Positions 957 to 34,445 of a stretch of 64,000 nt of DNA are shown here, piece by piece. Below the pieces are notes generated by a model. The model was given only the letters and a program-made list of their open reading frames with translations. It did no database searches and was not told the origin of the DNA. Source of the DNA: Mycobacterium sp. GTDB taxonomy: Bacteria; Actinomycetota; Actinomycetes; Mycobacteriales; Mycobacteriaceae. Within the stretch, counting starts at the first letter, position 1, and each line of letters begins with the position of its first letter. Made by a program: the position numbers and the translations under genes. The DNA lies in contig JAGQTU010000003.1 in assembly GCA_020438865.1 (NCBI GenBank), positions 62,001-126,000 on the forward strand. The letters run 5' to 3'.

Positions 957-1142
957 ACCCCACTCCCAGGAGAGCCTTCTCTGATCTCTAGTGGATGTGT
1001 GCTCAATCAAACGGAGGCCACGATGCCGCCTGTGCTGGCTGACGAGGTGGCCGTAACAACTCGGCTTGTCTGACAGCGTGAAACGAACCGGGAGCGCGCA
1101 TCCACCAGCCCCCGGGGCAACTTGTAGCGGAAGGCGTTGCGC

Positions 1143-16797: not shown

Positions 16798-17286
16798 GTG
16801 GTCGCTGTAAGTCCGTGGTGCCGTTAGCGTTGGTGGGATGAGCGGATCGGTGGGGGCGTATGTCGCCCAGGTCGACCGCGCTTTGGGCAGTGGTCAAGCG
16901 TTGTATCCGGCCTCCATCAGCCCGGTCGGGGTGGCCACCGACCTGCCCCCATCACCTCCGCCGCCGCCAGGCAGCAGTGGCACCGCCGAGGGTGCCGATG
17001 CCGCGGGGGGCCGCTATCAGTCTCAGTGGCAGGCCGCCCGCGGTACCGATGGTCAGGCCAGTAGCGCGGCCTCGGCCGGGCAGGCCGAGGCCCAAGCCGG
17101 TCGGGCGGGGGCTAGCGGGGTGCGCGGGTCCGCCCAGGCTCAGGCCGCCGCGATCGCCCCAGCGACCGGGTCCCCGGCCGGGGTGAAGTTGTTGGTCTCG
17201 GCGATGGACGACAAGCTGGCTGCGATGCAGCGCCAACTGACCACCACCCAGGAACAAAACCGGCTCCTCGCCATCCGCATGCGGCA
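16798..17286 (+). repeat. 489-bp direct repeat, copy 1
   Basis: Nearly identical to 33957-34445 (constant offset 17159). I see only four mismatches, all silent in the shared reading frame. The repeat begins 40 bp before the ATG of the lysozyme-type hydrolase and ends at codon 150, exactly where the two proteins diverge. Confidence 0.9.
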
Positions 17287-17956
17287 ACTAGTGGGCGCAT
17301 ACGGCCAGATGGGCGGTGCTGGACCCGCGAGCGGGATGAGCGCGATGGGCGGAGGCGCAGGCATGCAAAGCCCTGCCGCTGCCATGCCCGGCCTAAGCGG
17401 CCTTGCGGCCGGGCCACTGTCGGGCCTCTCGACTGACCTCAACACCGTTCTGTCCCAAGCGCAATCCGCGTCACCAAGCGGCATCGCCGGCGCGGCTAAC
17501 GAAGTCGTTCGCGGCCCCGGAACGGGAACACCCCTTGGGCGCCTGACGGCTAACTCAAGTCCGCGGGAAGTAGCCGCCGCAATCATCAACGAGGCCCACC
17601 GACGCGGCTATTCGCCGCAGCAAACGGTGGCCATCCTGTCGACCGCAATGCAGGAATCAGGGCTTCGGCCGAACGCGGTATCGCCCAACCGGGCCTGGGT
17701 AGGTATCTTCCAACAGGACACCTCCTACCCCGGCCGCGGAAATCCCAACACCGCCATCGCCGAATTCTTCAATCGACTTGACATCAAGGGGGGAAGGTCT
17801 TCCCCGGAAATCTACAAAACGATATTCTGGTTGCAGCAGGCACCGGGCCACCCCTCGGCGGAATACGCGTATTCCCATGGGAGACAACACTATTTAGCGG
17901 AAATAATGTCGCAGGAAAGCCGAGCTGCGGCACTATACCGTTCCATCACCGCATAA
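16838..17956 (+). CDS. ESX-associated peptidoglycan hydrolase, lysozyme/transglycosylase type
   Basis: 372 residues. Residues 1-149 are a helical coiled-coil domain identical to that of the NlpC/P60 protein at 33997. A Gly/Met/Ala linker follows, and residues about 240-370 form a lytic-transglycosylase-like domain (STAMQESGL, probable catalytic Glu273; WVGIFQQD). It would cleave glycan strands so the secretion machine can cross the wall. There is no signal peptide, so export probably uses the ESX system itself, guided by the N-terminal domain. The catalytic end has lower GC than the repeat part. Confidence 0.8.
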   Translation: MSGSVGAYVAQVDRALGSGQALYPASISPVGVATDLPPSPPPPPGSSGTAEGADAAGGRYQSQWQAARGTDGQASSAASAGQAEAQAGRAGASGVRGSAQAQAAAIAPATGSPAGVKLLVSAMDDKLAAMQRQLTTTQEQNRLLAIRMRQLVGAYGQMGGAGPASGMSAMGGGAGMQSPAAAMPGLSGLAAGPLSGLSTDLNTVLSQAQSASPSGIAGAANEVVRGPGTGTPLGRLTANSSPREVAAAIINEAHRRGYSPQQTVAILSTAMQESGLRPNAVSPNRAWVGIFQQDTSYPGRGNPNTAIAEFFNRLDIKGGRSSPEIYKTIFWLQQAPGHPSAEYAYSHGRQHYLAEIMSQESRAAALYRSITA

Positions 17957-17963
17957 ATGGTGG

Positions 17964-18036
17964 TGCTGTAGGTTCCGCTTTTCGATGGCGGAATTCCGCT
18001 TTCGGTGGCGGAAGGATGGCGGATCCGCCGGAAAGC
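17964..18036. repeat. Tandem palindromes, copy 1 (TTCCGC/GCGGAA)
   Basis: TTCCGC (17973), GCGGAATTCCGC (17988-17999), GCGGAA (18008) and the palindrome GGCGGATCCGCC (18018-18029) form overlapping inverted repeats just upstream of the hydrolase gene. A degenerate copy lies after the gene at 19000-19072. Likely a regulator operator or a small repeated element. Confidence 0.55.
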
Positions 18037-18133
18037 GCTTAGAGCGTCTAGCTGAGCATTGACGATGGGCCTGTCCCAGGGCAACGCTAGAGATCCGGGG
18101 GCTATCACCACCAACGCGCGAACCTCTTGAGAG

Positions 18134-18919
18134 ATGTCAATGATTGAGGTCATCGAAAAGACTGCGTCTCCGGGGCGAACTCCGATTGTGTTCGTCCATG
18201 GCGCTTCAAGCTCAGCGGACGTATGGGATGGGAACTTTCTGGACTTCTTTGCGGAGCGCGGTTATCGCGCGATCGCGCTCAGTCTGCGAGGGCATGGTGC
18301 CAGTACCCTAACGCAACCCCTGAGGAGGGTTTCGATTGCGAACTACGTCGAGGACCTCACCGCGGTCGTCTCGGAAATTGCGCCGGCACCGGTGCTCATC
18401 GGCCACTCAACGGGATGCTGGGTGGTACTGAATTACATCGCACAGCAATACGTTCCGGCGGCGGTACTGATAGCGCCTGGTACGCCGCAGGGACTGCGCC
18501 GCTGGGCCTTCCGCGCGTTCCTGCGCCATCCGTGGCTGATGTTGCGATCCAACACCCTCGGTAATCCTGTCGATTTGTTTCATACCCCAGGATTAGCGCG
18601 CGAGATTCTCTTCGCGCCTAGCTGTCCAGACTCAGTTGTCGAGGCGTTCGTGTCTCGGCTGCAGCCGGAGAGCCCACGGGCCGCTAGGGATACGGTCAAG
18701 CCGCTGCCTTCTCCTTCCGCGATTTCGGCCCCCATGTTGGTAGTCGGGGCAGCCCAAGACGCTTCGCGCGTGGAGGAGGATGCAGCTGCTGTGGCCGCAC
18801 GCTACGGAGCCCAATTGGAGATCATCATGGGGGTGGGTCACGCCATGATGCTCGAACCCCGGTGGACGACGGCGGCCGAGCGAATCGCCAGCTGGCTGAG
18901 GGGGCAGGGAATCTCTTGA
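18134..18919 (+). CDS. Alpha/beta hydrolase
   Basis: 261 residues with the full alpha/beta-hydrolase pattern: VFVHG oxyanion segment near the start, nucleophile Ser92 in GHSTG, acid Asp209 (AAQDAS) and base His236 (GVGHAMM). Such enzymes hydrolyse esters, lactones or C-C bonds; the substrate cannot be read from sequence. It stands alone, with an operator-like repeat upstream and an intrinsic terminator downstream. It is the first gene of the chromosomal-looking cargo. Confidence 0.88.
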   Translation: MSMIEVIEKTASPGRTPIVFVHGASSSADVWDGNFLDFFAERGYRAIALSLRGHGASTLTQPLRRVSIANYVEDLTAVVSEIAPAPVLIGHSTGCWVVLNYIAQQYVPAAVLIAPGTPQGLRRWAFRAFLRHPWLMLRSNTLGNPVDLFHTPGLAREILFAPSCPDSVVEAFVSRLQPESPRAARDTVKPLPSPSAISAPMLVVGAAQDASRVEEDAAAVAARYGAQLEIIMGVGHAMMLEPRWTTAAERIASWLRGQGIS

Positions 18920-18930
18920 TAAGAGGAAAG

Positions 18931-18958
18931 GCCACTCGCCCGGGAGGGTGGCAATTTT
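18931..18958 (+). terminator. Intrinsic terminator after the hydrolase
   Basis: GCCACTC (18931-18937) pairs with GGGTGGC (18946-18952) through one G-T wobble, followed by AATTTT (18953-18958). It lies 11 bp after the hydrolase stop. Confidence 0.6.
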
Positions 18959-18999
18959 GCCGGAAGGTTCTTGGGGGCGGCTACGTAACTGTTAACCGT

Positions 19000-19072
19000 C
19001 AGTGGTGGTTCCGTTTTTCGGTGGCGGAGGACTCCGCTTTTGGCGGCGAAAGGATGGCGTATCCGGCGGAGC
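19000..19072. repeat. Tandem palindromes, copy 2 (degenerate)
   Basis: Aligns with 17964-18036 at an offset of 1036-1038 bp. TTCCGT (19009), GCGGAG (19024), ACTCCGC (19031) and GATGGCGTATCC (19053) match copy 1 with substitutions and a 2-bp indel. The rest of 18959-19224 holds no gene that I can support. Confidence 0.5.
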
Positions 19073-19224
19073 GAACCTTGACCCGCTCACTTTCACAATT
19101 CTTTCAGTGCGTAGATCAGCCGATGCATAGTTTGGCCGGCTTCGGCGCTTTCCTGGCGGTTCACGGGGTGCCACGATGGGTGAGTGGCTCCAACGGTGGG
19201 CCCATCCGACGGTGAGGTCCGGCC

Positions 19225-19752
19225 ATGACGGCTGGGTCGCTGATTTGTGTGCCCTGCGGTTCGGAGTTGGGCGCCAGCGACAGGTTCTGCGCGCAGTGCG
19301 GTGCGCCAGCCAGTGCGCCCGCTCGCGCGGCGGAACTTAAGCAGGTGACGGTGCTGTTCGCCGACGTGGTTCGGTCGATGGACGTCGCCGCGGTGGTTGG
19401 CCCGGAGCGGCTGCGGGACATCGTGGCGCGGCTGCTGGAGGTGTGCGCGGCGGTGGTGCGTCGTTACGGCGGCACGCTGGACAAGTTCACCGGTGACGGG
19501 ATCATGGCGGTGTTCGGGGCGCCAAAGGCGTTGGAGGATCACGCTTTGCGGGCGTGCCTGGCGGCACTGGCGATCCAGAGCGACGTCACGGTCCTCCGTG
19601 AGGAGGTGCAGCGCGGCGATCAGGTTGAACTCCAGCTGCGGATCGGGCTGAATTCGGGGCAGGTCGTTGCGGGGGATCTCGGCGCATCTACCTACACGGC
19701 GATCGGCGATCAGGTCGGCCGAAAGCCGACCCGATTACCCGGGACTTCGTGA
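19225..19752 (+). pseudogene. Truncated zinc-ribbon adenylate cyclase (class III)
   Basis: 175 residues. A four-cysteine zinc ribbon (CVPCG...CAQCG) is followed by a class III cyclase domain with both metal-binding segments (LFADVV; DKFTGDGIMAVFGAP) and GLNSGQVVAG. The domain stops abruptly after YTAIGDQVG and runs into ten unrelated residues. Full-length relatives continue through the rest of the cyclase domain and usually a large AAA/TPR-like region. It is therefore a 3'-truncated fragment and probably inactive. Confidence 0.8.
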
Positions 19753-19870
19753 CGCGTACGGCGAGTTCGCGCATCGCCTGGGATTTCAGGGACACATCGC
19801 AATGGCCGAGGCACTGCCATGACAGCCCGCCAAACAAGCCAGCCGTATCTGCAGAAGGAAGTGAAGGCAT

Positions 19871-20950
19871 GTGATGGATTCCTGGCTCTGTGTGAATCCG
19901 GTCGGTCCTGGGAAGGTTGCGGATCTGTCCGAGGAAGACCGCACGCATGCTGTCGCGCTCGACGCGCGCCGCGCAGGTGGCGACGACGTCGTCGGGCGTG
20001 GATGCGCCTTGCTGGTCAGCAACGACATCGAGGCGGTACCGGTCGGCAGGGTGGTGTACACCGGGATGCTTAACGCCCGCGGCACCTACGAATCCGATGT
20101 CACCGTCACCCGCACCGGCCTGCAGGAGTACCTCATCGTCTCCAGCGCGGCGACCACCGAGCGCGACAAGGACCACATCCGCAAGCACATGGCTCCGGGG
20201 TCGCAGGCGTGGCTGGTCGATGTCACCTCCGCCTACGCCGTCTTCGGCGTGATGGGACCCACATCGCGCGAGTTGCTGAGCCGACTGACCGACGCCGACC
20301 TGGACAACGAGGACTTCCCCTTCTCCACGTATCAGGAGATCTCACTGGGTTACGCCACAGTGCGGGCCACCCGGATCACCTACGTCGGCGAATTAGGTTG
20401 GGAAATCTACGTTCCCGCCGAGTTCGCGGTTGGGGTGTACGAAGACCTGCTGCGGGCCGGCGCGCCGTTGGGTGTGCAGCGCGGCGGCTATTACGCCATC
20501 GAGTCGCTGCGCCTGGAGAAGGGCTACCGTGCCTTCGGCCGGGAACTGAGCCCGCGAGAGAATCCGGTCGAGGCCGGTCTGTTGTTCGCCTGCAAACTCA
20601 AGACCGTCATCCCCTTCCTGGGCCGTGAAGCGGTGGAGAAAGCCAAAGCCGAGGGGCCACGAACCAGGTGTGTCGGCTTCGCCGTCGAATCCCCGGAAGC
20701 GATGCTGTGGGGCGGGGAGCTGATTCTGCGCGACGGCGCCGTCGCCGGGCAGGTCACCTCCTCGGCATGGGGCCAGCACACCGGAGCATGCGTCGGGCTC
20801 GGATACCTGCGGGACGCCGGCGGTTCAGTGATCGACGCCGGGTGGATCAGGGCGGGCAGCTACCAGGTCGATGTCGGCGGCCAGCTCTACCCGATCTCGG
20901 TGTCACTCACGCCCATCTACGACCCCGCCAACGAGAGAGTCCGCGGCTGA
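19871..20950 (+). pseudogene. GcvT-domain remnant of a dimethylglycine/sarcosine dehydrogenase-like gene
   Basis: 359-codon frame. From about residue 55 (VPVGRVVYTGMLNARG) to the end it reads as an intact GcvT folate-binding domain plus its C-terminal barrel (NPVEAGLLFACKLK, GYLRDAG). Residues before that do not fit, and no FAD-binding domain is present. Relatives are usually much longer flavoproteins that demethylate N-methyl glycines. The 5' part was lost at a junction with the truncated cyclase gene about 120 bp upstream. Confidence 0.65.
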
Positions 20951-21049
20951 CCCCGTTTCGTCACCCGCGGCTCTCCACTCCTTGAGAGCAGCACTCCTAG
21001 AAGGTAACTGGGCGCCTACAATCGGCTGATCGACACGCACGACGCACCT

Positions 21050-21346
21050 TTGCCGCCGCCCGGAGTGACCTGGACCGGCGAGTGGGATGCCGATCACGGC
21101 GACCGCGTCTACGGCACCGACGCCGTAGCGATCGGCAACGCGGCCGCTCTGCTGACCGGCATCCAACATCGCAACGGGACCACCGTCAGCGGCATCGCCT
21201 TGCGTGTACGGGGAAGCATCATCCCCGGGCCGCCGCACGCAGCCGTCGTCACCGACCTCACGCCGGCCCAAGCCCGAGAACTCGCCGACCTCCTCGTCGA
21301 GCTCGCCCACCGGGCCGAGAAGCTGGACGGCCTGCGGTCCGGCTGA
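21050..21346 (+). CDS. Small conserved-type hypothetical protein
   Basis: 98 residues from TTG 21050 (no ATG is available; GTG 21065 is an alternative). It reads as one small domain with strands TVSGIALRVRGSII and HAAVVTDLT and a final helix LADLLVELAHRAEKL. Codon bias is typical of the region. I do not recognise it. Confidence 0.5.
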   Translation: MPPPGVTWTGEWDADHGDRVYGTDAVAIGNAAALLTGIQHRNGTTVSGIALRVRGSIIPGPPHAAVVTDLTPAQARELADLLVELAHRAEKLDGLRSG

Positions 21347-21567
21347 GTGATGCTCAGGTCGCTACCGGCAACGGCGCGACTTGGCGTGACTGCGGGCCGA
21401 AGTGCTCGTCAGTACGACCGCTCGCCCCAGCGCTTCTTCGCGTCATGTACTCCGTTCGGGGACAACAGGGTCATCCCCCAGAGCGGCCGTCCGGCGGACA
21501 CTCGCCACCAGCCACATCCCTGAGAGTGGTTCGTACAAGCTTTGATCCACCCGAGGAGTTGAGGACC

Positions 21568-21879
21568 ATGAAGAGCATCACGATCATCACCGAGCAGGTG
21601 TCGGCGAAAGCCTTGGCCGCGGCTATGCCGACCACCGGCGTCGCCTCGGTGTTCGTGAACCCAAATCCCGCTGCCACACCGCGTGACCACCGGTCGATGG
21701 AGAGCTACCAGGCGCTGCGCAATCCCCGGCGCTTCCGCCCCGATTACCGGATCGACGTTGTCGTCGACGACGACGCCGTGGACGCGGTCTTCGACGGGGT
21801 CTCCTTCGCCTACGGCGCAGGGTTGTTCACCGATGCGGAAATGTGGGTGAATCAAACCGCCCCGGCGGCGGCCGCCTGA
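21568..21879 (+). CDS. PII-like small signalling protein
   Basis: 103 residues from ATG 21568, with GAGGAG upstream. It starts MKSITIITEQVSAKAL and carries a basic loop (NPAATPRDHRSMES), then YRIDVVVDDDAVDAVFDGV. This matches the beta-alpha-beta arrangement of PII-superfamily proteins, which bind nucleotides or metabolites and regulate transporters. The T-loop is short and there is no adjacent transporter of the usual type, so the target is unknown. Confidence 0.6.
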   Translation: MKSITIITEQVSAKALAAAMPTTGVASVFVNPNPAATPRDHRSMESYQALRNPRRFRPDYRIDVVVDDDAVDAVFDGVSFAYGAGLFTDAEMWVNQTAPAAAA

Positions 21880-21972
21880 CGGTAACTGTGACGTCGCCGC
21901 CGGAACCGTCGACGTGCGGGATGGCCTTGGGTAGCGTCGAGGCCTCACCGACTTCCGGCCTGCGAGGCGCGA

Positions 21973-22215
21973 ATGACATCTTTCCCCTACGCCCGTACCG
22001 TCGTGCTCGCCGTCGGGGCGGCCGCCGTACTCACCATCCTCCTCAACCTCCGCCTGCACGATTGGCCGGCGGCACTCAATGTGGCGACCGTCGGTGTCTT
22101 CGAAGTCATTACCCTGGTTCTCGCGGTGCGGGCACTGGTGCGCTGGATCATCAACCGGCGCAGGCCCGACGATGATCCGCCGGGCTACCAGAAGGACTTC
22201 GGCTTGGCCGCCTGA
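21973..22215 (+). CDS. Small two-helix membrane protein
   Basis: 80 residues with two hydrophobic helices (about 8-26 and 38-58) and a charged tail (NRRRPDDDPPGYQKD). No family recognised. Confidence 0.5.
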   Translation: MTSFPYARTVVLAVGAAAVLTILLNLRLHDWPAALNVATVGVFEVITLVLAVRALVRWIINRRRPDDDPPGYQKDFGLAA

Positions 22216-22329
22216 CGGCACACCGCCACCGGCCGGGAAGCGGTACACGCCGTTGTCTCGCCCCGCCCGGTGGGTCCCGATCCGGCGAATCTGCCTCAGT
22301 TGGGCTGCTGCGTAGGGGATTTCGGACCG

Positions 22330-22716
22330 CTAGGCGGTCACGATCTGTCCGTCGCGAACCGCCACCGGCCGCGACGCCAGCGGAGCGGTGGCCGGCCCCT
22401 GGAGCACGCTGCCGTCGAGGCCGAACTTGCTCCCATGACAGGGGCAGACGATGCTGTCGTTCTTCACCGCGACCGCGCAGCCGAGGTGTGTGCACCGCGC
22501 GGAGAAGCCCTTGAAAACCCCCGGGCTGGGCTGGGTGATGAGGATGCCGTCGACGACTTTCGCCTCTCCCACGTCTGCCGCGGGGGTCAGCGTCTGGCCG
22601 GCGGCGGGGGTCGCGGGCTGTGCCGGGGAGTCGGTGGACTTCCCGCAGGCGGCGCGCGCAGAACGCCAACGGCGTAGGCGCGTCCTGACCGCGCCAGACT
22701 GGGAGCGTGCACGCAT
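22330..22716 (-). CDS. Rieske [2Fe-2S] protein with a damaged N-terminus
   Basis: 128-codon frame. The C-terminal 90 residues form a complete Rieske domain with CTHLGC and CPCHGSKF, which bind a 2Fe-2S cluster through two Cys and two His. Relatives carry a Tat/lipoprotein signal ending in AAC; here only RAACGKS remains and the upstream residues are not hydrophobic. The start region also overlaps the divergent permease (22707). The signal peptide is probably lost, so export and function are doubtful. Confidence 0.7.
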   Translation of the reverse strand: MRARSQSGAVRTRLRRWRSARAACGKSTDSPAQPATPAAGQTLTPAADVGEAKVVDGILITQPSPGVFKGFSARCTHLGCAVAVKNDSIVCPCHGSKFGLDGSVLQGPATAPLASRPVAVRDGQIVTA

Positions 22717-23510
22717 CGCAACCCGTCATCGGTCCCGCGCTGGCCATCGTCTGCATCCTGATGGTGACGGCCGCCGCGCTGGTCTACCGCTTCGCCGCGC
22801 TGGGATCGGCGTGGACGGTGCCCCGAGCGGCGCTGCGCGCGGTGGCGCAGTTGGCGGCGGTCGCCGGCGTACTGGCCGCGGCGATGAGCCGGCTCTGGTC
22901 CTCGGCGCTGGTGCTCGCGGTCATGTTCGTCGTCGCCGCGGCGACGGCGGCGCGGCGCAGCCAGGCCCACCAGGGTTCGTGGTGGCTGGCCGGATCGGTC
23001 GGTATCGGGCTGCTCTCGGTGCTGCCGCTGCTGCTGCTGTCAGGGGTTGTCCCTCTCGACGGCGTCGCGATCGTGCCGGTTGCCGGCAGCGTTCTCGGCG
23101 CGACGATGACCGCGACGGCGGTGGCCGCCCGACGGGCCCTGGACACCCTGGGCCTGCGGGCCGGCGAGGTGGAGGCGGCGCTGAGTCTGGGATTCAGCGA
23201 CCGAGCCGCGCGGATGGAGGTCATCGGCCGCTCCGCCGCCGATGCTCTGCTTCCCAACGTCGATCAGGCCCGCACGGTCGGTGTCGTGACGCTGCCCGGT
23301 GCCTTCGTCGGAGTCCTGCTCAGCACCGGCTCGCCGCTACAGGCCGGCGCCGTGCAGATCCTGATCCTGATCGCCATCCTGTTGGCGCAGACCTGCGCGG
23401 TCGCCACGACCATCGAACTCGTCGCCCGCGGTGCACTTACCCGCGACCCGGGAGTTCGCCCCGAGCCCCGCGCCCAGCCATGGCGGAGGGCGAAGATTCA
23501 GGCCCGGTGA
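22707..23510 (+). CDS. FetB/UPF0014-family membrane permease
   Basis: 267 residues from GTG 22707 with about seven membrane helices. It contains the family signature around GATMTATAVAARRA, the cytosolic EVEAALSLGFS segment and TVGVVTLPGAFVGVLL. FetB-type permeases normally work with the FetA ATPase in iron/metal export. No ATPase gene is adjacent, so it may be orphaned. A short basic tail follows the last helix. The region 23511-23748 downstream holds nothing I can support. Confidence 0.8.
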   Translation: MHASQPVIGPALAIVCILMVTAAALVYRFAALGSAWTVPRAALRAVAQLAAVAGVLAAAMSRLWSSALVLAVMFVVAAATAARRSQAHQGSWWLAGSVGIGLLSVLPLLLLSGVVPLDGVAIVPVAGSVLGATMTATAVAARRALDTLGLRAGEVEAALSLGFSDRAARMEVIGRSAADALLPNVDQARTVGVVTLPGAFVGVLLSTGSPLQAGAVQILILIAILLAQTCAVATTIELVARGALTRDPGVRPEPRAQPWRRAKIQAR

Positions 23511-23748
23511 TGTCGCCCAAGGCCTGCGGAGGATCGGCGATCTACTCTCGGATTGACGGACACCGTCCCAGGCTTACCCTGCAGCACAACCGAATTCACA
23601 ACGGTTTGACAGGCGGCGTGGCCGTTGATAACGACACCGTGACGCCACCGCCTGGCCGTACCCTACGGCGCGCCTGGCCCCTTACGCTGCGATCCAGACA
23701 CGCGGCTACCGATGGCGGCGGGCCCCACCAACGAGGAGTTATCCACCC

Positions 23749-23817
23749 ATGTCCCGACGCACGATCACCGTCGCCTGCACAGCGGCGCTCGCGTTCGCCG
23801 ATCTGACGGTCAGCTAG
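23749..23817 (+). pseudogene. Signal-peptide fragment 1
   Basis: A 22-codon frame from ATG 23749 with CGAGGAG upstream reads as a signal peptide (MSRRTITVACTAALAFADL) and then stops. It looks like the 5' end of a secreted-protein gene whose body is missing. Confidence 0.4.
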
Positions 23818-23826
23818 GACTCCGGC

Positions 23827-23922
23827 ATGGTCGAGATCACGCGACGAAATGTCCTTATCGGCGCCGCGGCGGCGGCACCGTTGGCCGCTTGCCGTCAGTT
23901 CATGTTCCACGGTTCGCCGTAG
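23827..23922 (+). pseudogene. Signal-peptide fragment 2 (Tat lipoprotein start)
   Basis: A 31-codon frame encodes a twin-arginine, lipobox-type signal (TRRNVLIGAAAAAPLAAC). Directly after the lipobox Cys the DNA becomes the 3' end of the opposite-strand MspA-type gene. This is a recombination junction near 23890-23897. Confidence 0.5.
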
Positions 23923-24546
23923 GTGGTGACCGTTTCGCCGGACTTGGAGATGAGTCGGGCGAAGGGACGCAGCAAGACGCCGCCGGCGGCTCCGGTGACG
24001 CTGCCGTGGGCGTTCGACACGGCGACCGCGCCGTGAGGCCCGGTGACATCGACGGAAAACGTCGCCACCTCCTGCACCCCCGGACCCGTTTCCGAGGTCG
24101 GCACTGATCGAGAGCCCGGGGAAGAGGTTCGGGGTGATGACGCTGCCCAGAGGGTTGAGTCCAAACGGACTCAGGTTCGCCTTGTCGAGCAGGATGTTGG
24201 GCGTCGTGTAGCTGAAGTTTATGCCGACACCCAGTGAGTACGGGAACCCCACCTGATAACCGAGTTCCAATGTGCCCGCAAAGTTTTCGGCTCCGGGCCC
24301 GATCACGTCGTAGATCGCCCGCCCGGAATGGAACCATTCGCGGGTCAGCCGGTTGCGGTCCAGGGGTGCGACACCGTCGAGGAAGGTGTCCCATTGCGCG
24401 ACCTTCAACGTATTGCCGGAGTTGTCCATCTGGGTCATTTGGTTATCCAGCGCCGCCGACGCCGGCGACGTGGCGGCCGGCATGAGGAGAGCCGCGCCGC
24501 AGAAGATAGCGGCGGCGATTCGGCACGGGCGAAATTTCATTCTCAC
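23895..24546 (-). pseudogene. MspA-family porin, disrupted by a 1-base frameshift
   Basis: A signal peptide (about residues 1-31) is followed by a recognisable MspA-type mature protein (LDNQMTQMDNSGNTLKVAQW, then GVGINFSYTTPNILL). The frame breaks after SADLGNG, where an extra base sits in the C-run at 24085-24087. The remaining C-terminus continues in another frame (EVATFSVDV, then LLRPFARLI, ending in GEPWNMN) to a stop at 23895. MspA proteins form octameric outer-membrane channels. It is a recent pseudogene or a sequencing error. Confidence 0.88.
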
Positions 24547-24603
24547 ACCTTAAAAAAACGAGCTTGGGGGCCGCTTTATGGGGACTTGTGGAATTGCTGT
24601 GTG

Positions 24604-25380: not shown

Positions 25381-25382
25381 GG

Positions 25383-26630: not shown

Positions 26631-26753
26631 GGTTACCAATCGGCGCTGAGTATTCGCTGAGGGGACAACCTCAGCGCTTTCACAGGACCGCTTCACACAC
26701 TGGCGGGGGTAGGCGCCGCACCGGCGCCGGACGAATCAGTCGAGAGGAATACC

Positions 26754-26951
26754 GTGACGTCGAGAAAGAAGATCGCCACCGTCGTTGCCGGGGCGACCAT
26801 CGTGCTAGGAGCCGCCGGCGTGGCCGGCCTGGCCTACCAGGGTGAAATGCCGGGAACGTTGTTCGGGCACGGGCAGTCCCAGCAGGGACCGGACACCCCG
26901 GGTGTCCCCGACCTGCCCGAGCCGGGTGACACACCGGATGCCGGCGACTGA
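26754..26951 (+). CDS. Small exported acidic protein
   Basis: 65 residues from GTG 26754 with GAGAGGA upstream. A signal-anchor (about residues 6-28) leads to a Pro/Asp-rich tail (DLPEPGDTPDAGD). It lies directly ahead of the response regulator and is probably co-transcribed. Function unknown. Confidence 0.55.
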   Translation: MTSRKKIATVVAGATIVLGAAGVAGLAYQGEMPGTLFGHGQSQQGPDTPGVPDLPEPGDTPDAGD

Positions 26952-27030
26952 CGCGCTCGTATCCTTCGGTGCTGGGGGCGGTGTTGCGCTGCCCTCAGCA
27001 CCGGCCTTCGTCCCCGAGGAGCAACCAGCG

Positions 27031-27714
27031 ATGAGAGTGCTCGTCGTCGAGGACGAACCACGGCTGGCCAACACGCTGGCGGTGGGTCTGGGGGCCGAGG
27101 GCTTCGTCGTCGTCACCGCCGACAACGGCACCGATGGTCTGTGGCGTGCCACCGAGGAGACCTTCGACCTGGTGGTGCTCGACATCATGCTGCCCGGGCT
27201 CAGCGGCTACGAGGTGCTGCGGCGTATGCGCGCTCAGGGCGTGTGGACTCCGGTGCTGATGCTCACCGCCAAGGACGGCGAGTACGACGAGGCCGATGCC
27301 TTCGACCTCGGCGCCGACGACTACCTCACCAAGCCGTTCTCCTTCGTCGTGCTGACCGCGCGACTGCGCGCGCTGATGCGCCGCGGGGCACCGGAGCGCC
27401 CGGCGGTTCTCGGCGTCGGCGATCTCACCCTCGATCCCGCCCGGCGAGTGGTCCACCGCGGCGGTACACCGATCAGCCTGACTCCCCGTGAGTTCGGACT
27501 GCTGGAGTACCTGCTGCGTAACCAGGACAACGCCGTCACGAAAAGCCAGATCCTGCAACATGTCTGGGACTCCAACTACAGCGGGCCGGACAATGTGGTG
27601 GAGGTCTACATGGGGTATCTGCGCCGCAAGATCGACACCCCGTTCGGCACCAACACGATCCACACCGTGCGCGGGGTGGGCTACCGCATCGACTCGTCCG
27701 ACACGGGCAGCTGA
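27031..27714 (+). CDS. OmpR/PhoB-type response regulator
   Basis: 227 residues from ATG 27031, with CCGAGGAG upstream. The receiver domain has acidic pocket EDE, phospho-acceptor Asp51 (VVLDIMLPG) and conserved Thr/Lys (MLTAKD, TKPF). The C-terminal winged helix ends VRGVGYRI. It should bind promoters of the surrounding operon when phosphorylated by the kinase encoded on the opposite strand. The two genes overlap tail to tail by 34 bp, an uncommon arrangement. Confidence 0.93.
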   Translation: MRVLVVEDEPRLANTLAVGLGAEGFVVVTADNGTDGLWRATEETFDLVVLDIMLPGLSGYEVLRRMRAQGVWTPVLMLTAKDGEYDEADAFDLGADDYLTKPFSFVVLTARLRALMRRGAPERPAVLGVGDLTLDPARRVVHRGGTPISLTPREFGLLEYLLRNQDNAVTKSQILQHVWDSNYSGPDNVVEVYMGYLRRKIDTPFGTNTIHTVRGVGYRIDSSDTGS

Positions 27715-29054
27715 ACGACGATCGCCGCACCACCCTGGGGGCTGTCGCGCACCGTGACGCTGCCGTTGTGGGCGGCAACGATCTCCGCCACGATCGCCAG
27801 GCCGAGTCCGCTGCCCCCACTGGACCGCGAGCGATCGGAGTCCAGGCGCACGAAGCGTTCGAACACCCGCGCCCGCTCCCCATCCGGTATGCCGGGCCCG
27901 TCGTCGCTGACGATCAGCGTAGCCGTGCCACCGGCGGCGCGCAGCGACACCTCGACGCGGCTGCGGCAGTGGCGCACCGCGTTCTCCAGCAGGTTGCGGA
28001 GCACTCGTGCGAGAGCCTGCGGATCGCCGGACACACGGACGGGGACGACGCCCGTCAAAACGCTGTGTACGGACGAGGCGGCAACGCGCGTAACCTCCTG
28101 TGCCACAACGTCATCGAGGTCGACGTCCTCGCGCCGCACCGGAATCCCGAGTTCGTCGGCGCGCGCCAACAGCAGCAGATCGTCGATCAACGACCGCATC
28201 CGGTTGGCCTCCGGCAGCAGCGCGTTGTCGACGAGTTCCAGCTTGAGCAACTCTGGATGCGCCGCACCGACCTCCAGTGCGGAGATGATGGTGCTCAACG
28301 GGCTGCGCAACTCGTGTGAAGCGTCACCGACGAACCGCCGCTGCGCGGCGTGCCCGGCGTCGATGCGTGCCAGCATGTCGTTCATCGTCACCGCCAGCGC
28401 GGCGATCTCGTCACGATGCGCGGGCACCGCGACGCGCTCGGACAGGTCATGGCTGCTGATCTCCGCCACCTGCGCGCGTATGGCCTCCACCGACTTCAGT
28501 GATCGGCGGACGAGAACGAAGGTGGCGGCCGCCGCGCCGGCAACAACGACCGGCATCGCCGCCGCCAGCAGCAGCGCCACGCGCCACACCGTCGTCTCTC
28601 CCGGATCGGTCCTGGCACCCACCAATACGGTGTATTGGCCCGCGGGCTGCGAGCTCACCCGCACGTCGACGCCGTCCACGGTCGCGCTTCGCTGCGTGCC
28701 GGCACGATCGATCAACGGGATTCGCGGCCCTCCGTCGGAGGCCCGGACCACCGCACCGGAGGGATCGACAACCTGAATCACGCCGATCTGTGCGTCGGTC
28801 AGCAACAGCTGACTGTCCAACTCCCGCGGTGAATCCCCCTGTAACCCGACGGCGACGTCGCGGGCACGCCGGTCCGCCGCGGCGTCCACGTCGGCCAGGA
28901 CCTGTGCGTGGAGGATCCCGATCACGGCCGCCCCCACCGAGAGGAAGGCCAGCAGCACCACCAAGCCGGCCGCGAGTGCCGAACGCATCGGGATGCCCCA
29001 GGTCGCCGGATGCAGCCAGGCTGCGCGACCGGAGTCCGGCGCATCCGCAGTCAT
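27681..29054 (-). CDS. Membrane sensor histidine kinase
   Basis: 457 residues from ATG 29054. It has a first membrane helix (about 25-48), an extracytoplasmic sensor of about 100 residues, a second helix (about 150-175) and HAMP. The kinase core carries His247 (DASHELRSPLS), N-box NLLENAVRH, DDGPGIPD and GSGLGLAIV. It is the likely partner of the response regulator whose 3' end it overlaps. The stimulus is unknown; the flanking UppP, porin and lipoprotein genes suggest envelope stress. Confidence 0.92.
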   Translation of the reverse strand: MTADAPDSGRAAWLHPATWGIPMRSALAAGLVVLLAFLSVGAAVIGILHAQVLADVDAAADRRARDVAVGLQGDSPRELDSQLLLTDAQIGVIQVVDPSGAVVRASDGGPRIPLIDRAGTQRSATVDGVDVRVSSQPAGQYTVLVGARTDPGETTVWRVALLLAAAMPVVVAGAAAATFVLVRRSLKSVEAIRAQVAEISSHDLSERVAVPAHRDEIAALAVTMNDMLARIDAGHAAQRRFVGDASHELRSPLSTIISALEVGAAHPELLKLELVDNALLPEANRMRSLIDDLLLLARADELGIPVRREDVDLDDVVAQEVTRVAASSVHSVLTGVVPVRVSGDPQALARVLRNLLENAVRHCRSRVEVSLRAAGGTATLIVSDDGPGIPDGERARVFERFVRLDSDRSRSSGGSGLGLAIVAEIVAAHNGSVTVRDSPQGGAAIVVQLPVSDESMR

Positions 29055-29194
29055 CGGGCCATTCTCACCTTTGGTCAACCTGATCCGGCCGAGCCTGACC
29101 GAACGGCGCTGAAGAACCGCTGAGAACGATTGGCTTGCGCGGCAACCGTCTGCCACGGTGTACCCGACACACCGAAGAAAGGCGCCCCCTGGTC

Positions 29195-30121
29195 GTGACC
29201 GCTGACCTCAGCTACGCCGAAGCCGTCATCGTCGGATTGTTCCAGGGTGTCACCGAACTCTTCCCCGTCTCCAGCCTCGGCCATTCGGTTCTGATTCCCG
29301 CCCTCGTCGGTGGGCGGTGGGCGCAAGACCTCAACGTCTCCACGCCGGAGTCCCCCTACCTGGCCTTCATCGTCGGGTTGCATGTCGCCACCGCGATCGC
29401 ACTGCTGCTCTTCTTCTGGCGCGACTGGCTGGTGATCATCGGAGGCTTCTTCAGCTCCCTTCGACACCGCCGGATCACCACGCGCCCCGAACGGCTCGCG
29501 TGGCTGATCGTCCTCGCCACGATCCCGGTCGGCCTTTCCGGCCTCGCCCTCGAACACCTGTTCCGCACAACCCTCGGCAAACCCATTCCAGCTGCGGCGT
29601 TCCTGGTAGTCAACGGTGCCATCCTGCTTCTAGGCGAACGTCAGCGGCGTGCAGCGCCGGTGCCGGCGAATGCACTGTCCGCCAATGCTTCTGGGACCGA
29701 CGACCGATCCACGCTCGGTAACGCGGTGGACGACCGGCTCGCAGACCAGACCGTCAAACAAGGTGTCCTGATCGGCTGCGCCCAGATCCTCGCGCTACTG
29801 CCGGGCATCAGCCGGTCCGGCATCACGATGGTCGCGGGCTTGCTGCGCGGACTCTCCCACGAGGAGGCGGCGCGGTTCTCATTTCTGCTCGCCACGCCGA
29901 TCATCCTCGCCGCAGGTCTGTTCAAGGTGCCCGACCTGTTCGGGCCCCTGGGCGACGGCATTCACGGCCAGGTGCTCGCCGGTGGCATCGCGTCGTTCAT
30001 CGCCGCTTACCTTTCGGTCCGCTTCCTGACCAAGTATTTCGAGACCCGCACGCTGACGCCGTTCGCGATCTACTGCCTCGCACTCGGCGGCATCGGCCTG
30101 TTGTGGCTCACGCTGCGCTGA
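29195..30121 (+). CDS. uppP: Undecaprenyl-diphosphatase
   Basis: 308 residues from GTG 29195, polytopic. The family signatures are present: GVTELFPVSSLGH near the N-terminus (usual form EGxTEFLPISSxGH) and PGISRSG in the second half. UppP recycles the C50/C55 lipid carrier used for peptidoglycan and can give bacitracin resistance. A hydrophilic insertion around residues 150-190 separates the halves. It is divergent from the histidine kinase gene. Confidence 0.9.
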   Translation: MTADLSYAEAVIVGLFQGVTELFPVSSLGHSVLIPALVGGRWAQDLNVSTPESPYLAFIVGLHVATAIALLLFFWRDWLVIIGGFFSSLRHRRITTRPERLAWLIVLATIPVGLSGLALEHLFRTTLGKPIPAAAFLVVNGAILLLGERQRRAAPVPANALSANASGTDDRSTLGNAVDDRLADQTVKQGVLIGCAQILALLPGISRSGITMVAGLLRGLSHEEAARFSFLLATPIILAAGLFKVPDLFGPLGDGIHGQVLAGGIASFIAAYLSVRFLTKYFETRTLTPFAIYCLALGGIGLLWLTLR

Positions 30122-30136
30122 CTACGCTGAGGGCCG

Positions 30137-30901
30137 ATGGCAGCATTCGGCAGGGACACCACCACCGACGAGGTGCTCGCAGGACTGGACCTTTCAGGCC
30201 GTCATGTGGTGATCACCGGCGCGGCCGGTGGACTCGGCCGGGAGAGTGCACGCGCGATGGCGGCCCACGGCGCCTCGGTCACGGTGACGGCCCGCGACCG
30301 GCGGCGGGCGCAAAACGCCGTCAGCGAGTTGCGTCAGCTGGTGCCGGGCGGGCGTTTCGACGCGGGAGTCGTTGACCTGGGCGACTTTTCGTCGATTCGC
30401 TCCTTCACCGACGGGTTCCTCGCCGACCACGATGCCATCGATGTGCTCATCAACAACGCCGGGGTGATGGCTTGCCCGTTCGGCCATACCGTCGACGGCT
30501 TCGAGACCCAGTTCGGCACCAACCACCTCGGGCATTTTCTCCTCACGGCCCGACTCGCCCCCGCTCTGCTGCGAGGTGAGTCGCCGCGGGTGGTGACCCT
30601 CTCCTCGGCCGGGCACTCGCGCGCCGACGTCGACCTGGCGGACCCCAACTTCACAACGACGCCCTACAACGCCTGGATCGCCTACGGCAGGTCGAAGTCC
30701 GCCAACGCGCTGTTCGCGCGGGAATTGGCTCGACGCGCCGGGCCCGCCGGTGTGTTGTCGTTCTCGGTGCACCCGGGCGCCATCGTGACCGAACTGGGCC
30801 GCCACCTGACTGAGGAACTGCTGATCGACGTCATCAACGACACCCGGCAGCGCAGCGCGGCGGCAGCACGTACGTACGTACCACTATTTCCCCACCGCTG
30901 A
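30137..30901 (+). pseudogene. Short-chain dehydrogenase, C-terminus clipped
   Basis: 254 residues. NAD(P)-binding TGAAGGLG, NNAG, catalytic Ser (LSSAGH) and YGRSK are all intact. Relatives of this oxidoreductase group are usually about 300-320 residues. Here the frame leaves the family pattern after INDTRQRSAAA and ends in unrelated residues, so the substrate-side C-terminus is missing. It marks the right edge of the chromosomal-looking cargo. Confidence 0.65.
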
Positions 30902-31078
30902 ATCTTGGTACCCGCCTCAGCACGGACGGCGTCCTTTCGCAGGGCATCGCTGAGGGTGGCATCAGCAGTGAGCGTTGTGTTGCGGTGACATCGTCGAGGA
31001 TGCGTGAAATGGTGGTGGGGTGGTGCGCTGTTGGTGTGTTTTTGTAGGAGCGATTGCTGCTGCTCTTCTTCTTGTCTT

Positions 31079-32005
31079 CTAGAGGGTCCAATCGGGGCCG
31101 ATCTTTGGTGCTCGCTTCTGACCACCGGTGTCCCATGCGCGGCTGGTGGGCCATTCGCCGTAGAAGGCGACCAGAGCTTCGTCGGGCCAAGTGTCGGTAG
31201 CGGTGTCGCCGAGTCCCATCGCATGAGCGACGTCCCGGGAGCGGTCGAACGCGGCCATACGCTCGGGATGATTGTCGCCGTAGGAGGTGGGGCACTCCTG
31301 TCCGGGCGTTGCTCGACACCGTGGGCAAGTCACTCGCTGCCCGAACACGCGACGGCGTCCAGTTCGGTCGAATGCTTGCCACGGTGAGGGGGCGATGCCG
31401 ATCAGCACGTCGTACCCGAGAGATGGATCAGATTCCATGTGCATTCCGAGCTCGACGATTCGGCCGTCGAGCGGGTGGTAGGGATTGTCCGGATAGGTGC
31501 GGCCCAGTAGCGGATCGAGCGCGTCAATCGTCGGTTTCCACAGCGGTAGCCAGCCCCGATTGCCGATGACGAAGGACAGTTCCAGTCTGACGGGTACGCC
31601 GTCGGGAAGCATCTGCGCACCCGCCTCATAGACGGCGGCTTTGATTTCATCTTTGAACGCGTTTTTTTCCACCGATGCAGTGGTTCTCACCATGAGCACC
31701 TGTTCTGGTGGAGATGCCACCCGGGCATCGGCAATTCGGACATACGAGCGCTGCTGGGCGTCGCGCTGTTTGGTAGCCCACACCGAGACGAGGTAGGGAT
31801 TCTTGAGTTCGTTGGCGATGGGGTGTGCGTAGTTGTCCAGGTCCGCCACGTCGGACAATAGATCCCGGGAGTGTGGCGTCCCGACGTCGATTCGCAGGGC
31901 CCATGGTCGGTCCGAAATCCGAACGGCCGCAACGAGTTCTGTGGTGTCGGCGACGTATGCGCGCAGTCGGACTTGTTCGGGATCGCTGTTGGCGTTCCGC
32001 GACAT
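31079..32005 (-). CDS. Hypothetical protein with RusA-like core and zinc finger
   Basis: 308 residues from ATG 32005 (332 if started at 32077). The centre (VRLELSFVIGNRG, LWKPTIDALDPLLG, GRIVELGMHM) resembles RusA-type Holliday-junction nucleases in spacing, though I do not see all their acidic residues. The C-terminal part has a CPRCRATPGQECP...H zinc-finger motif of the type common in mycobacteriophage and plasmid proteins. It is probably plasmid or phage derived; the enzyme role is uncertain. Confidence 0.55.
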   Translation of the reverse strand: MSRNANSDPEQVRLRAYVADTTELVAAVRISDRPWALRIDVGTPHSRDLLSDVADLDNYAHPIANELKNPYLVSVWATKQRDAQQRSYVRIADARVASPPEQVLMVRTTASVEKNAFKDEIKAAVYEAGAQMLPDGVPVRLELSFVIGNRGWLPLWKPTIDALDPLLGRTYPDNPYHPLDGRIVELGMHMESDPSLGYDVLIGIAPSPWQAFDRTGRRRVFGQRVTCPRCRATPGQECPTSYGDNHPERMAAFDRSRDVAHAMGLGDTATDTWPDEALVAFYGEWPTSRAWDTGGQKRAPKIGPDWTL

Positions 32006-32301
32006 TGGCCGGGGGGTTTGCCGCAGTTGCAAAGGTTGGTTGTCGGGGCAGGAATACCAGCGCACCCGACCAACCATAGAGCCGAGTCGCGACGCAGGTT
32101 TCGGTTCAGGGTTCAGCCCAGCAGCAATGCGGGCGAGCAGCTTCCCCCCTAAGGGAAGCTGTTGAAGAGCAACGCCCAGCGGCGCCGCGGTCCGTTGATT
32201 CCGGATGACTGGGGTAGGCGGTCCCTGCTCCTTTACACCGCTGCGAACGACTGGTCCTGTTTGGGCTGCAAGTGTCGGGTTGGCTGGCTACGCTGCCGCC
32301 C

Positions 32302-32655: not shown

Positions 32656-32666
32656 CGGGCGCGCCG

Positions 32667-33313
32667 TTAGGGCTGCTGCGCGCCAGCCCGGTACTTGTTG
32701 ACCTGGGCCTCTAGCAGACTCATGACTTCGTTGGCGTTTGCGTTGAGCAACCCGCCACCGCCGGTGTTGAGAGGACAGGCCCGACGACGGCGAAGAATTG
32801 GAGGAGGCCGGTGTCGCCGGCGGTGATTTTGATCCCGAGGGAGCCTTCGCCGACTTTGGGTGCGGACATGGGGGCGTACGTGCTTTGGACCCCGTTGTAG
32901 GTCTCGCCGGTACAGGTCTTGAGGGCATTGGCTAATGCGTCGAAGGATGCCTTGGCTTGATCGGCGTTGGCGTACTGGCGCAGCCCCAGGCTGAGGTACT
33001 CGGCGGACATGCCGCCGCCTTTGGTGAAGTCGCGACGAACGCGGACGCTCTCCTCGAAAGGCGGTGGGTAGTCGCAGAACGTCTTCGACGGACCCTCGGC
33101 GGCGGGTGGGTCTTGGCTGTAGCCCGGGGGGAGGTCCTGCAGGTCCAGGAGGGCCTTGGCGAGTTCCTCCTTGGGCAGGATGCGGTAGGCCGGCGCGGCG
33201 GCGGTGGTGGCTGTCAGCGCAGCGGGGCTGCCGCTAGATTGCGATGTTCCGCTGTGGCCGCAGCCAGCGACCAGTAAAACAACCAAGCCGAGACTCGCCA
33301 GGGCACGTCCCAT
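32667..33313 (-). pseudogene. PknH-sensor-like lipoprotein, frameshifted near its 3' end
   Basis: Starts at ATG 33313 with a lipoprotein signal (VVLLVAGCGHS). The mature part (PKEELAKALLDLQDLPPGY...) resembles the extracellular sensor domain of PknH-type kinases and LpqN-like lipoproteins. The original frame ends at 32720. If one base is added near 32764-32775, translation continues GGGGLLNANANEVMSLLEAQ to a stop at 32667, restoring the family's final helix. Hence a recent frameshift or a base-calling error. Confidence 0.7.
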
Positions 33314-33430
33314 CAGATTCCCCCCGTCGCTAGTACGCCAGCGCATCTGAAGAAGGCCCGCCAACACGACGGTCCCCTTTAATGCCGTCACCGCGGCCGG
33401 CCAAGCACCTGGTGATCCTATTCTGTCCCT

Positions 33431-33910
33431 ATGGACGCAGCGCGGTACGTCGACCAGATCGACCGTGTGCTGGCTGCGGCGTGCGGTCTGTTGCCACCGC
33501 CGGACGGCACCTTAGCCAACCTCGACCACCCGCCAGCCCCGGCGGACATTCCCGAGGGCCGAAGCGGTCTAGCGAGTGCGGCCGCGGCGGCCGCAGAGCG
33601 CTACCAATCGGCAGGGGAGCGGGTCCGGGCAACACATGACGGGGCTTCCGGCGCTGTTGAAGGCGCCTTGGAGGCGGCTCGGGAGGCGGCCCGCACCGCA
33701 GAGGGCATTCGCAGTGCCGCTCAGGTACGGGCTGCGGCCCTTCTGCCGGTCGCGAACACACCCGCCGGGCTACGAACGCTCGTGGACACGATGGCGTCTT
33801 CGCTGGCATCCATGCAGAACCTTCTGAGCAGCACAAGAGCGCAGATGGGCACCTCAGCAGGGGAGATACGCCGCCACAGCGGGGACTGGCGCGGCATTTT
33901 GGACACCTGA
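33431..33910 (+). CDS. Stand-alone relative of the hydrolase N-terminal domain
   Basis: 159 residues. The start (YVDQIDRVLAAACGLLPPP) and helical layout follow the same scheme as the shared domain of the two hydrolases (YVAQVDRALGSGQALYP), but the sequence is diverged and no catalytic domain follows. It lies 86 bp upstream of the NlpC/P60 hydrolase. It may be an accessory partner that forms a coiled coil with the hydrolases, or a diverged duplicate. Confidence 0.65.
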   Translation: MDAARYVDQIDRVLAAACGLLPPPDGTLANLDHPPAPADIPEGRSGLASAAAAAAERYQSAGERVRATHDGASGAVEGALEAAREAARTAEGIRSAAQVRAAALLPVANTPAGLRTLVDTMASSLASMQNLLSSTRAQMGTSAGEIRRHSGDWRGILDT

Positions 33911-33956
33911 TCACCCGGGGAGTGCCTGGCAGCAAACTTTGGCTCCCGTCTCGGAC

Positions 33957-34445
33957 GTGGTCGCTGTAAGTCCGTGGTGCCGTTAGCGTTGGTGGGATGA
34001 GCGGATCGGTGGGGGCGTATGTCGCCCAGGTCGACCGCGCTTTGGGCAGTGGTCAAGCGTTGTATCCGGCCTCCATCAGCCCGGTCGGGGTGGCCACCGA
34101 CCTGCCCCCATCACCTCCGCCGCCGCCAGGCAGCAGTGGCACCGCCGAGGGTGCCGATGCCGCGGGGGGCCGCTATCAGTCTCAGTGGCAGGCCGCCCGC
34201 GGTACCGACGGTCAGGCCAGTAGCGCGGCCTCGGCCGGGCAGGCCGAGGCCCAAGCCGGCCGGGCGGGGGCTAGCGGGGTGCGCGGGTCCGCCCAGGCTC
34301 AGGCCGCCGCGATCGCCCCAGCGACCGGGTCCCCGGCCGGGGTGAAGTTGTTGGTCTCGGCGATGGACGACAAGCTGGCCGCGATGCAGCGCCAACTGAC
34401 CACCACCCAGGAACAAAACCGGCTTCTCGCCATCCGCATGCGGCA
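33957..34445 (+). repeat. 489-bp direct repeat, copy 2
   Basis: Second copy of the 16798-17286 repeat. It covers the 40 bp upstream of the NlpC/P60 gene and its first 149 codons. The encoded segments are identical in protein sequence; the few base differences are silent. The sequences on either side of the two copies are unrelated. Confidence 0.9.

What the first reader, a model, noticed from the sequence alone, without database searches (positions are those of the whole stretch)
16798..34445. Two peptidoglycan hydrolases share an identical N-terminal domain but carry unrelated catalytic domains
Seen: residues 1-149 of the lysozyme-type (16838) and NlpC/P60 (33997) proteins are identical, and the DNA differs at about four silent positions over 489 bp. 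After codon 150 they are unrelated. One cuts glycan, the other peptides. Inference: a common docking or export domain delivers two complementary wall-cutting activities to the same secretion machine, and the DNA is kept identical by gene conversion.
Basis: partly seen in the sequence, partly recalled or inferred. Interest (0 to 1): 0.78.

Follow-up and report, generated by a model that had tools for sequence, protein, structure and literature searches.

The report
Twin wall-cutters with one copied tag
Plasmids of mycobacteria carry pairs of wall-cutting enzymes whose cutting parts differ and resemble those of phages, while their front part and its apparent promoter are repeatedly copied from one gene to the other, so that both wear the same tag although the tag differs from plasmid to plasmid.

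Summary
In detail: window 16798-17286 and 33957-34445 differ at 4 of 489 bases, all silent, and residues 1-150 of the two hydrolases are identical. It is not an assembly artefact: complete plasmids show the same. In 35 systems, the window's included, I compared 37 hydrolase pairs: N-domain DNA is at least 98% identical in 19, 90-98% in 11, 80-90% in 4, lower in 3. Between plasmids the domain differs widely, and more than EccB in 88 of 91 comparisons. The N-domain tree follows the plasmid, not the catalytic partner. This is concerted evolution by recombination. The copied block holds a promoter-like leader, the N domain and a linker. Catalytic parts are interchangeable (four types), and all four have phage tail or endolysin relatives. 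Glycan-plus-peptide pairing is usual, not universal. pMyong1 looks like a deletion by crossover between such repeats. That the N domain docks both enzymes on the ESX machine is likely but not shown; its predicted fold is a long helical hairpin without a clear match.

The parts
16798..17286 (+). repeat copy 1: leader, N domain of hydrolase 1
   Evidence: 99.2% identical to copy 2 over 489 bp
33957..34445 (+). repeat copy 2: leader, N domain of hydrolase 2
16838..17956 (+). hydrolase 1 gene, 372 aa: N domain + lysozyme/transglycosylase-like domain (type LTA, about 17471-17953)
   Evidence: PF18013 below cut-off; PHROG endolysin family 700; 57% to mycobacteriophage lysin A
33997..35052 (+). hydrolase 2 gene, 351 aa: N domain + NlpC/P60 domain (about 34735-35019)
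   Evidence: PF00877 E 2e-19
33431..33910 (+). SA: stand-alone diverged copy of the N domain, 159 aa, not homogenised
   Evidence: 56 of 137 aligned columns identical to the N domain; own branch in the tree
16825..16830 (+). TAGCGT, -10-like hexamer 7 nt before the ATG of hydrolase 1 (inference: leaderless promoter)
   Evidence: sequence; motif statistics over 70 leaders
33984..33989 (+). the same hexamer before hydrolase 2
13785..16472 (+). large protein, 895 aa, called EspB-like here (my label); lies upstream of hydrolase 1 in many relatives
   Evidence: WXG100_2 23.8 bits, cut-off 27; homologues in 24 of 33 loci of the window's type examined, some of which are short stretches or separate loci of one system
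35070..36602 (+). EccB
   Evidence: TIGR03919, 472.6 bits
36599..40897 (+). EccC
   Evidence: TIGR03924/TIGR03925 over cut-off
18134..32077 (.). stretch between the two hydrolases with unrelated genes; its counterpart varies from 1.2 kb start-to-start (pMK12478) to tens of kb in relatives
   Evidence: for content; for spacings

Best explanation
On ESX-bearing mycobacterial plasmids two (once three) wall hydrolases are built on one shared chassis, a promoter-like leader, a helical N domain and a linker, with interchangeable phage-like catalytic domains. SHOWN by sequence comparison: recurrent homologous recombination between the chassis copies (gene conversion, and in one case what looks like a crossover with deletion) keeps them alike inside a plasmid, while the chassis diverges between plasmids faster than EccB. 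INFERRED: the N domain is a common tag that brings both enzymes to the plasmid's own ESX machine, so that two kinds of wall bond are opened at one spot for assembly of the secretion/conjugation apparatus; the shared promoter keeps their doses matched; conversion lets both copies follow a fast-changing partner together.
For: 37 pairs, 19 at 98% DNA identity or more. N-domain tree sorted by plasmid; one clade of all LT N domains rejected, AU p 3e-64. Old catalytic orthologues, for example M. rufum vs M. crocinum 83% and 79% aa with 32% and 44% identity at four-fold sites, beside 100% and 99% silent identity of the two N domains inside each plasmid. Concordant site patterns, 31 of 36 comparisons without a gene-specific site. 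The tract ends before the catalytic match in 31 of 35 pairs; in the other 4 my M15 query included linker. Identity does not follow spacing: 99.6% at 44.7 kb (G522), 86.9% at 1.8 kb (L029). Promoter-like hexamer inside the block in 39 of 70 leaders, shuffled mean 4.4 and maximum 10. EccB within 4 kb downstream in 22 of 25 loci. SA not homogenised and no other repeat of 150 bp or more at 95% in 9 loci. N more divergent than EccB in 88 of 91, than the peptidase domain in 44 of 51 comparisons.
Against: Three pairs are clearly diverged, and UC10 vs D4bin10 shows 25 gene-specific to 4 concordant sites, so identity is not strictly required. pMyong1 lacks hydrolase 1, and the P60 gene is interrupted by an insertion in 2 of 7 further plasmids fetched, so each enzyme is dispensable at least for plasmid persistence. 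Fold comparison gives no stand-out relative. No binding, secretion or activity data. For the distant clade II an EccB nearby was shown only for G197 (about 17 kb away); the window's EccB/EccC found nothing in the other clade II stretches.
Confidence: 0.62

Rival explanations
1. Neutral homogenisation: long, nearly identical repeats on one plasmid convert each other; sameness of the tag has no function of its own, and the domain is only a secretion signal or linker.
For: Tract and identity vary from 74% to 100% between systems; diverged pairs survive.
Against: The pattern recurs in plasmids that differ by about half in the domain, the tract holds a promoter-like leader and stops before the catalytic domain; SA beside it is not homogenised, though its divergence may itself prevent recombination.
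Confidence: 0.25
2. Recent independent grafting: in each lineage the chassis was newly copied onto a second catalytic domain, without repeated conversion.
For: Catalytic partners do change: M. aquaticum has LTB on an N domain grouping with those that carry LTA in WUMAC-067 and M. wolinskyi.
Against: The same catalytic pair in the same order is old in the LTB/P60, LTA/P60 and LTB/M15 groups, yet N domains match inside each plasmid.
Confidence: 0.07
3. Active shuffling device: the repeats serve to delete, restore or exchange catalytic cassettes, and near-identity is a by-product.
For: pMyong1 carries the upstream flank of the LT gene before P60 at 14 of 14 informative sites, then a mosaic; material between the repeats varies widely.
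Against: No recombinase or conserved crossover site was seen at the ends, but I ran no dedicated search; pMyong1-type records were the only deletion of this kind noticed.
Confidence: 0.05
4. Assembly artefact of the window.
For: Draft contigs of several relatives end in or next to the homologous stretch (L011, L013, L018, L021, L023, L024, L036).
Against: The copies differ at 4 sites; records labelled complete (M. rufum, M. crocinum, pMK12478) show the same arrangement.
Confidence: 0.01

Closest known systems
EssH, dedicated cell-wall hydrolase of the S. aureus type VIIb system (PMC13059805; abstract and its N-terminal-domain section seen)
   Same: A wall hydrolase serving a type VII system, with an N-terminal domain without recognised features that is needed besides catalysis; copurifies with the core complex (abstract).
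   Different: EssH is single, Sec-secreted with a CHAP domain and belongs to a type VIIb system; here two or three hydrolases share a homogenised N domain without an obvious signal peptide (no tool run for that) beside a type VIIa-like ESX locus.
VirB1-type lytic transglycosylases of type IV secretion (PMC12857230, passages)
   Same: Local peptidoglycan opening for a conjugation machine.
   Different: Other context and N domain; here paired with a peptidase.
Catalytic domains of phage tape-measure proteins and endolysins (PHROGs and phage records)
   Same: All four catalytic types have relatives there: LTA 57% to lysin A, M15-type 54% and LTB about 40% to tape-measure proteins, P60 about 40% to endolysins or minor tail proteins.
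   Different: The N domain has no phage match at E <= 0.01; LTB's phage hits are mostly streptococcal and staphylococcal phages (305 of 340 records), so no recent mycobacteriophage origin is shown for it.
DUF4226 (PF10774)
   Same: Distant similarity: clade II hydrolases reach 14.8-17.2 bits (cut-off 23.5), the 619-aa open frame at window 1128-2984 reaches 26 bits.
   Different: The window's N domain itself has no match up to E 0.1.

Membership tests
Concerted evolution / gene conversion of paralogues | Paralogues more alike within than between replicons, silent sites included | tested here: met
Concerted evolution / gene conversion of paralogues | Duplication older than the split of the replicons compared | tested here: met
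   catalytic orthologues of both genes in M. rufum, M. crocinum, G522; likewise in the kansasii-type and LTB/M15 groups
NlpC/P60 (PF00877) | Score above the curated cut-off | tested here: met
   hydrolase 2, 69.9 bits, cut-off 23
Phage_lysozyme2 (PF18013) / SLT (PF01464) | Score above the curated cut-off | tested here: not met
   hydrolase 1, 24.2 (cut-off 28.2) and 15.9 bits (21.3); endolysin likeness by PHROG 700 E 5e-23 and lysin A 57%
DUF4226 (PF10774) | Score above the curated cut-off | tested here: not met
   no match for the window's N domain; clade II below cut-off
T7SS substrate helical hairpins (WXG100, PE/PPE, EspB) | Fold match that stands out from unrelated helical chains | tested here: inconclusive
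Dedicated T7SS wall hydrolase (EssH-like role) | Gene lies in a type VII locus | tested here: met
   EccB within 4 kb downstream in 22 of 25 relatives, and in the window
Dedicated T7SS wall hydrolase (EssH-like role) | Needed for secretion; binds the core complex through its N domain | not testable with these tools
   needs experiments
M15 / LAS metallopeptidases (for the M15-type domain of relatives) | Match to a curated family model | tested here: not met
   no Pfam or NCBIfam match; the label rests on a recalled motif

The most novel reading that the evidence does not exclude
ESX plasmids use one gene-conversion-locked chassis (promoter plus docking domain) as a socket into which phage-derived wall-drilling domains are plugged in varying combinations, giving the plasmid's secretion/mating apparatus its own matched two-blade drill. 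The fast, lockstep divergence of the tag would make it a plasmid-specific zip code that keeps co-resident ESX systems apart.
Probability: 0.35. Interest if true: 0.78.

Novelty: new variant of a known kind. Interest (0 to 1): 0.64.

Why it matters
How type VII systems and mycobacterial conjugation get through peptidoglycan is, to my knowledge, open for mycobacteria; the passages I saw name VirB1 for type IV systems and EssH for the staphylococcal system. Two hydrolases locked to one tag by recombination, next to eccB on conjugative-type plasmids, are direct candidates and offer a comparative test: the tag's partner should show the same fast, plasmid-specific divergence. It is also a clear bacterial case of concerted evolution of part of a gene, with the promoter-like leader inside the copied tract.

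Tried and rejected
Rejected: assembly artefact (complete plasmids agree); recent independent grafting as the general account (old catalytic pairs); dependence on spacing; general homogenisation of all paralogues (self-comparison of 9 loci, which found besides the hydrolase repeat only a 177-bp repeat at 81% in L007 and a 718-bp one at 85.5% in L065; SA not homogenised).

Led nowhere: Pfam for the N domain (NCBIfam matches of hydrolase 2 lie outside it, and hydrolase 1 had none); PDB sequence search with alignment A3, one hit under 0.001 (a CFA/I fimbrial fusion construct, E 1e-4, no stretch passing on its own) and weaker ones that I take for composition matches; fold search of the N domain, no E <= 0.001, no stand-out row; PDB search for LTA, mostly antibody chains, a muramidase at E 0.054 and an SH3b-domain protein at 0.032. 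The second structure job (whole hydrolase 1, single sequence) came back poor, mean pLDDT 46, and was not used. Of 7 further plasmid stretches fetched, 6 are of the pMK12478 type and practically identical to it here (4 intact, 2 with an insertion in the P60 gene) and 1 is of the pMyong1 type, so they gave no further conversion evidence. I expected two enzyme types in one tape-measure protein: PHROG profile positions suggest it (phrog_9228, 6090, 4197), but in the 3 tape-measure proteins checked by blastp only one type was found in each. One clade of all SA copies was rejected (p 0.024): two group with the kansasii-type branch, one (L029_SA) sits apart on a long branch.

Rows dropped: before the 37 pairs, loci with one hydrolase in the fetched stretch (L032, L105, L109, L110, L122, L123, L125, L127-L130, L133), loci without a typed catalytic part, and M. 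wolinskyi, whose contig ends inside the repeat (99.5% over 410 nt). In one search, 82 plasmid comparisons were run and only the 36 with over 60% invariant sites were printed. The pairs are not independent: rufum/PSTR-4-N, rhodesiae/vinylchloridicum and G666/G513 are near-duplicates, G650/G576 close. I fetched a selection of the places listed, whose list was cut; searches scored 9 candidates per genome, so tallies are lower bounds. Not in print: searches in the held library listed no title or abstract describing this pair; PMC4791881 has no mention of hydrolase, transglycosylase or NlpC; Ummels et al. 2014 is not held.
Full report
WHAT IS THERE. The window is bases 62001-126000 of contig C302 (190,650 bp) of a draft genome whose nearest relatives in the searches are mycobacteria. 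The contig carries a TrwC relaxase and an ESX locus: EccB 35070, EccC 36599, an ESAT-6-like gene at 42736, EccD 45805, EccA 50328. The two genes encode a lysozyme/transglycosylase-like protein and an NlpC/P60 protein. A third, diverged copy of the domain (SA) stands alone at 33431-33910.

RELATIVES. A protein search of the plasmid collection found 14 records. Regions of M. rufum, M. crocinum, pMK12478 and pMyong1 show hydrolase genes and SA upstream of eccB and eccC, with variable material between; in pMK12478 SA comes before hydrolase 1, and pMyong1 lacks hydrolase 1. A scan of genome contigs gave 29 loci. Searches of whole genomes gave matches in 9 of 401 (family draw, E <= 0.001), 68 of 396 (genus draw, E <= 1e-6) and 10 of 397 genomes in 2 of 85 genera (order draw, E <= 1e-7). 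The domain is thus nearly confined to the window's own genus in these draws. A second, distant clade of paired hydrolases exists (for example G197, G447, G501, G635).

THE PAIRS. In 35 systems, the window's included, I compared 37 within-system hydrolase pairs. DNA identity of the homologous tract is 98% or more in 19, 90-98% in 11, 80-90% in 4 and lower or undetected in 3 (M. aquaticum failed my register filter there and has 78.7% over 450 nt). The tract begins 18-130 nt before the domain start found by the profile, except in G636a where only an inner part matches, and ends before the catalytic match in 31 of 35 pairs; in the other 4, all with the M15 query that included linker, it overlaps that query. 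Catalytic types combine: LTA+P60, LTB+P60, LTB+M15-type, M15-type+P60, and three enzymes in G445. 32 of 37 pairs join a glycan-cutter type with a peptide-cutter type; 5 join two peptide-cutter types. 'M15-type' is my label from a recalled motif; no Pfam or NCBIfam model matched. LTA and LTB as glycan-cutters rest on weak lysozyme/SLT profile matches and phage relatives.

CONCERTED EVOLUTION. In the tree of 39 N domains leaves group mainly by plasmid, and a single clade of LT N domains is rejected (AU p 3e-64); in the rhodesiae/UC10/D4bin10 group the three LT copies do group together. Between M. rufum and M. crocinum both catalytic domains are old orthologues (83% and 79% aa; 32% and 44% identity at four-fold sites), while the N domains of the two genes are 100% and 99% identical at such sites inside each plasmid. 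Of the 36 plasmid comparisons shown (of 82 run; the more divergent ones were filtered out), 31 have no gene-specific site; the other five are UC10/D4bin10 (4 concordant, 25 gene-specific), rhodesiae/UC10 (1, 4), rhodesiae/D4bin10 (10, 2), G517/G661 (61, 9) and G650/G576 (12, 4). Homogenisation is therefore episodic. The SA paralogue is not homogenised. In self-comparisons of 9 loci of 16-64 kb no other repeat over 150 bp at 95% or more was found.

CROSSOVER. pMyong1 has no LT gene. Its P60 gene carries the upstream flank of the LT gene of pMK12478 at 14 of 14 informative sites, then alternates between the two parental types (2 P60-type sites, then 1 LT, 2 P60, 1 LT, 1 P60). This is what a crossover between the repeats would leave, with pMK12478 as stand-in for the ancestor.

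LEADER. 39 of 70 hydrolase leaders hold TANNNT 6-7 nt before a start codon, against a mean of 4.4 and a maximum of 10 in 200 shuffles (leaders of a pair are not independent, and the shuffles keep base make-up only). From general knowledge of leaderless mycobacterial promoters (recalled) I read this as a shared promoter inside the copied block; no transcript data were seen.

RATE. Over 91 comparisons of 14 systems the N domain averages 54% identity and EccB 70%; N is below EccB in 88. Over 51 comparisons with a shared peptidase type, N is below the catalytic domain in 44. The SA copies average 38%.

CATALYTIC ORIGIN. LTA matches mycobacteriophage lysin A at 57% (453 phage records at E <= 1e-5), the M15-type domain tape-measure proteins at 54% (717), LTB tape-measure proteins at about 40% (340, mostly streptococcal and staphylococcal phages), P60 endolysin or minor tail proteins at about 40% (401); the N domain matches no phage record at E <= 0.01. 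The direction of transfer was not tested.

VERDICT. The wider pattern, a chassis locked within plasmids, fast-changing between them and fitted with phage-like cutters, is the real finding.

Noticed in passing
window 18134-32077: Cargo between the two repeats: alpha/beta hydrolase, GcvT-like protein, response regulator and histidine kinase, BacA/UppP, short-chain dehydrogenase; parts are 75-77% identical to Rhodococcus and Embleya plasmid records.
   Followed up: partly
window 1128-2984: 619-aa open frame with a DUF4226 match (26 bits, cut-off 23.5); distant kin of the N domain.
   Followed up: partly
L115 6236-9695 (G445): Three hydrolases in a row (LTB, P60, M15-type) with the N domain: 99.5% DNA identity between two, about 95-96% to the third.
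   Followed up: partly
L139 3715-4955; L140 2757-4183: Insertion elements interrupt the P60 hydrolase gene in pMAC109a and in an M. chimaera plasmid that otherwise match pMK12478 here.
   Followed up: no
L012 10798-12270; L016 downstream of 11035: In M. rhodesiae the match to the LT catalytic domain is split by about 1.5 kb and no EccB lies in the 9.4 kb after the P60 gene: a decaying system, in which the N domains are 94% identical.
   Followed up: partly
L065 14959-16390 (G267): Tandem duplication of 718 bp at 85.5% identity, of the small gene that lies before the EspB-like gene.
   Followed up: no
L067 6813-7806 (G000 contig C313): Two adjacent DUF4226 matches on another contig of the own genome (115 and 73 bits).
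   Followed up: no
window 31079-32077, minus strand: 332-aa protein with a phage zinc-finger match over cut-off and a TIR_2 match far below its cut-off.
   Followed up: no
L025 versus L009 and L010: M. aquaticum has an LTB catalytic domain on an N domain that groups with those carrying LTA in WUMAC-067 and M. wolinskyi: a likely catalytic swap.
   Followed up: partly
G197:C1 2437826 and 2472159: Clade II pair on the main contig, 34 kb apart with identical N-domain DNA over the domain, inside a stretch with ParA-like and very large helicase-like open frames; EccB about 17 kb away.
   Followed up: partly
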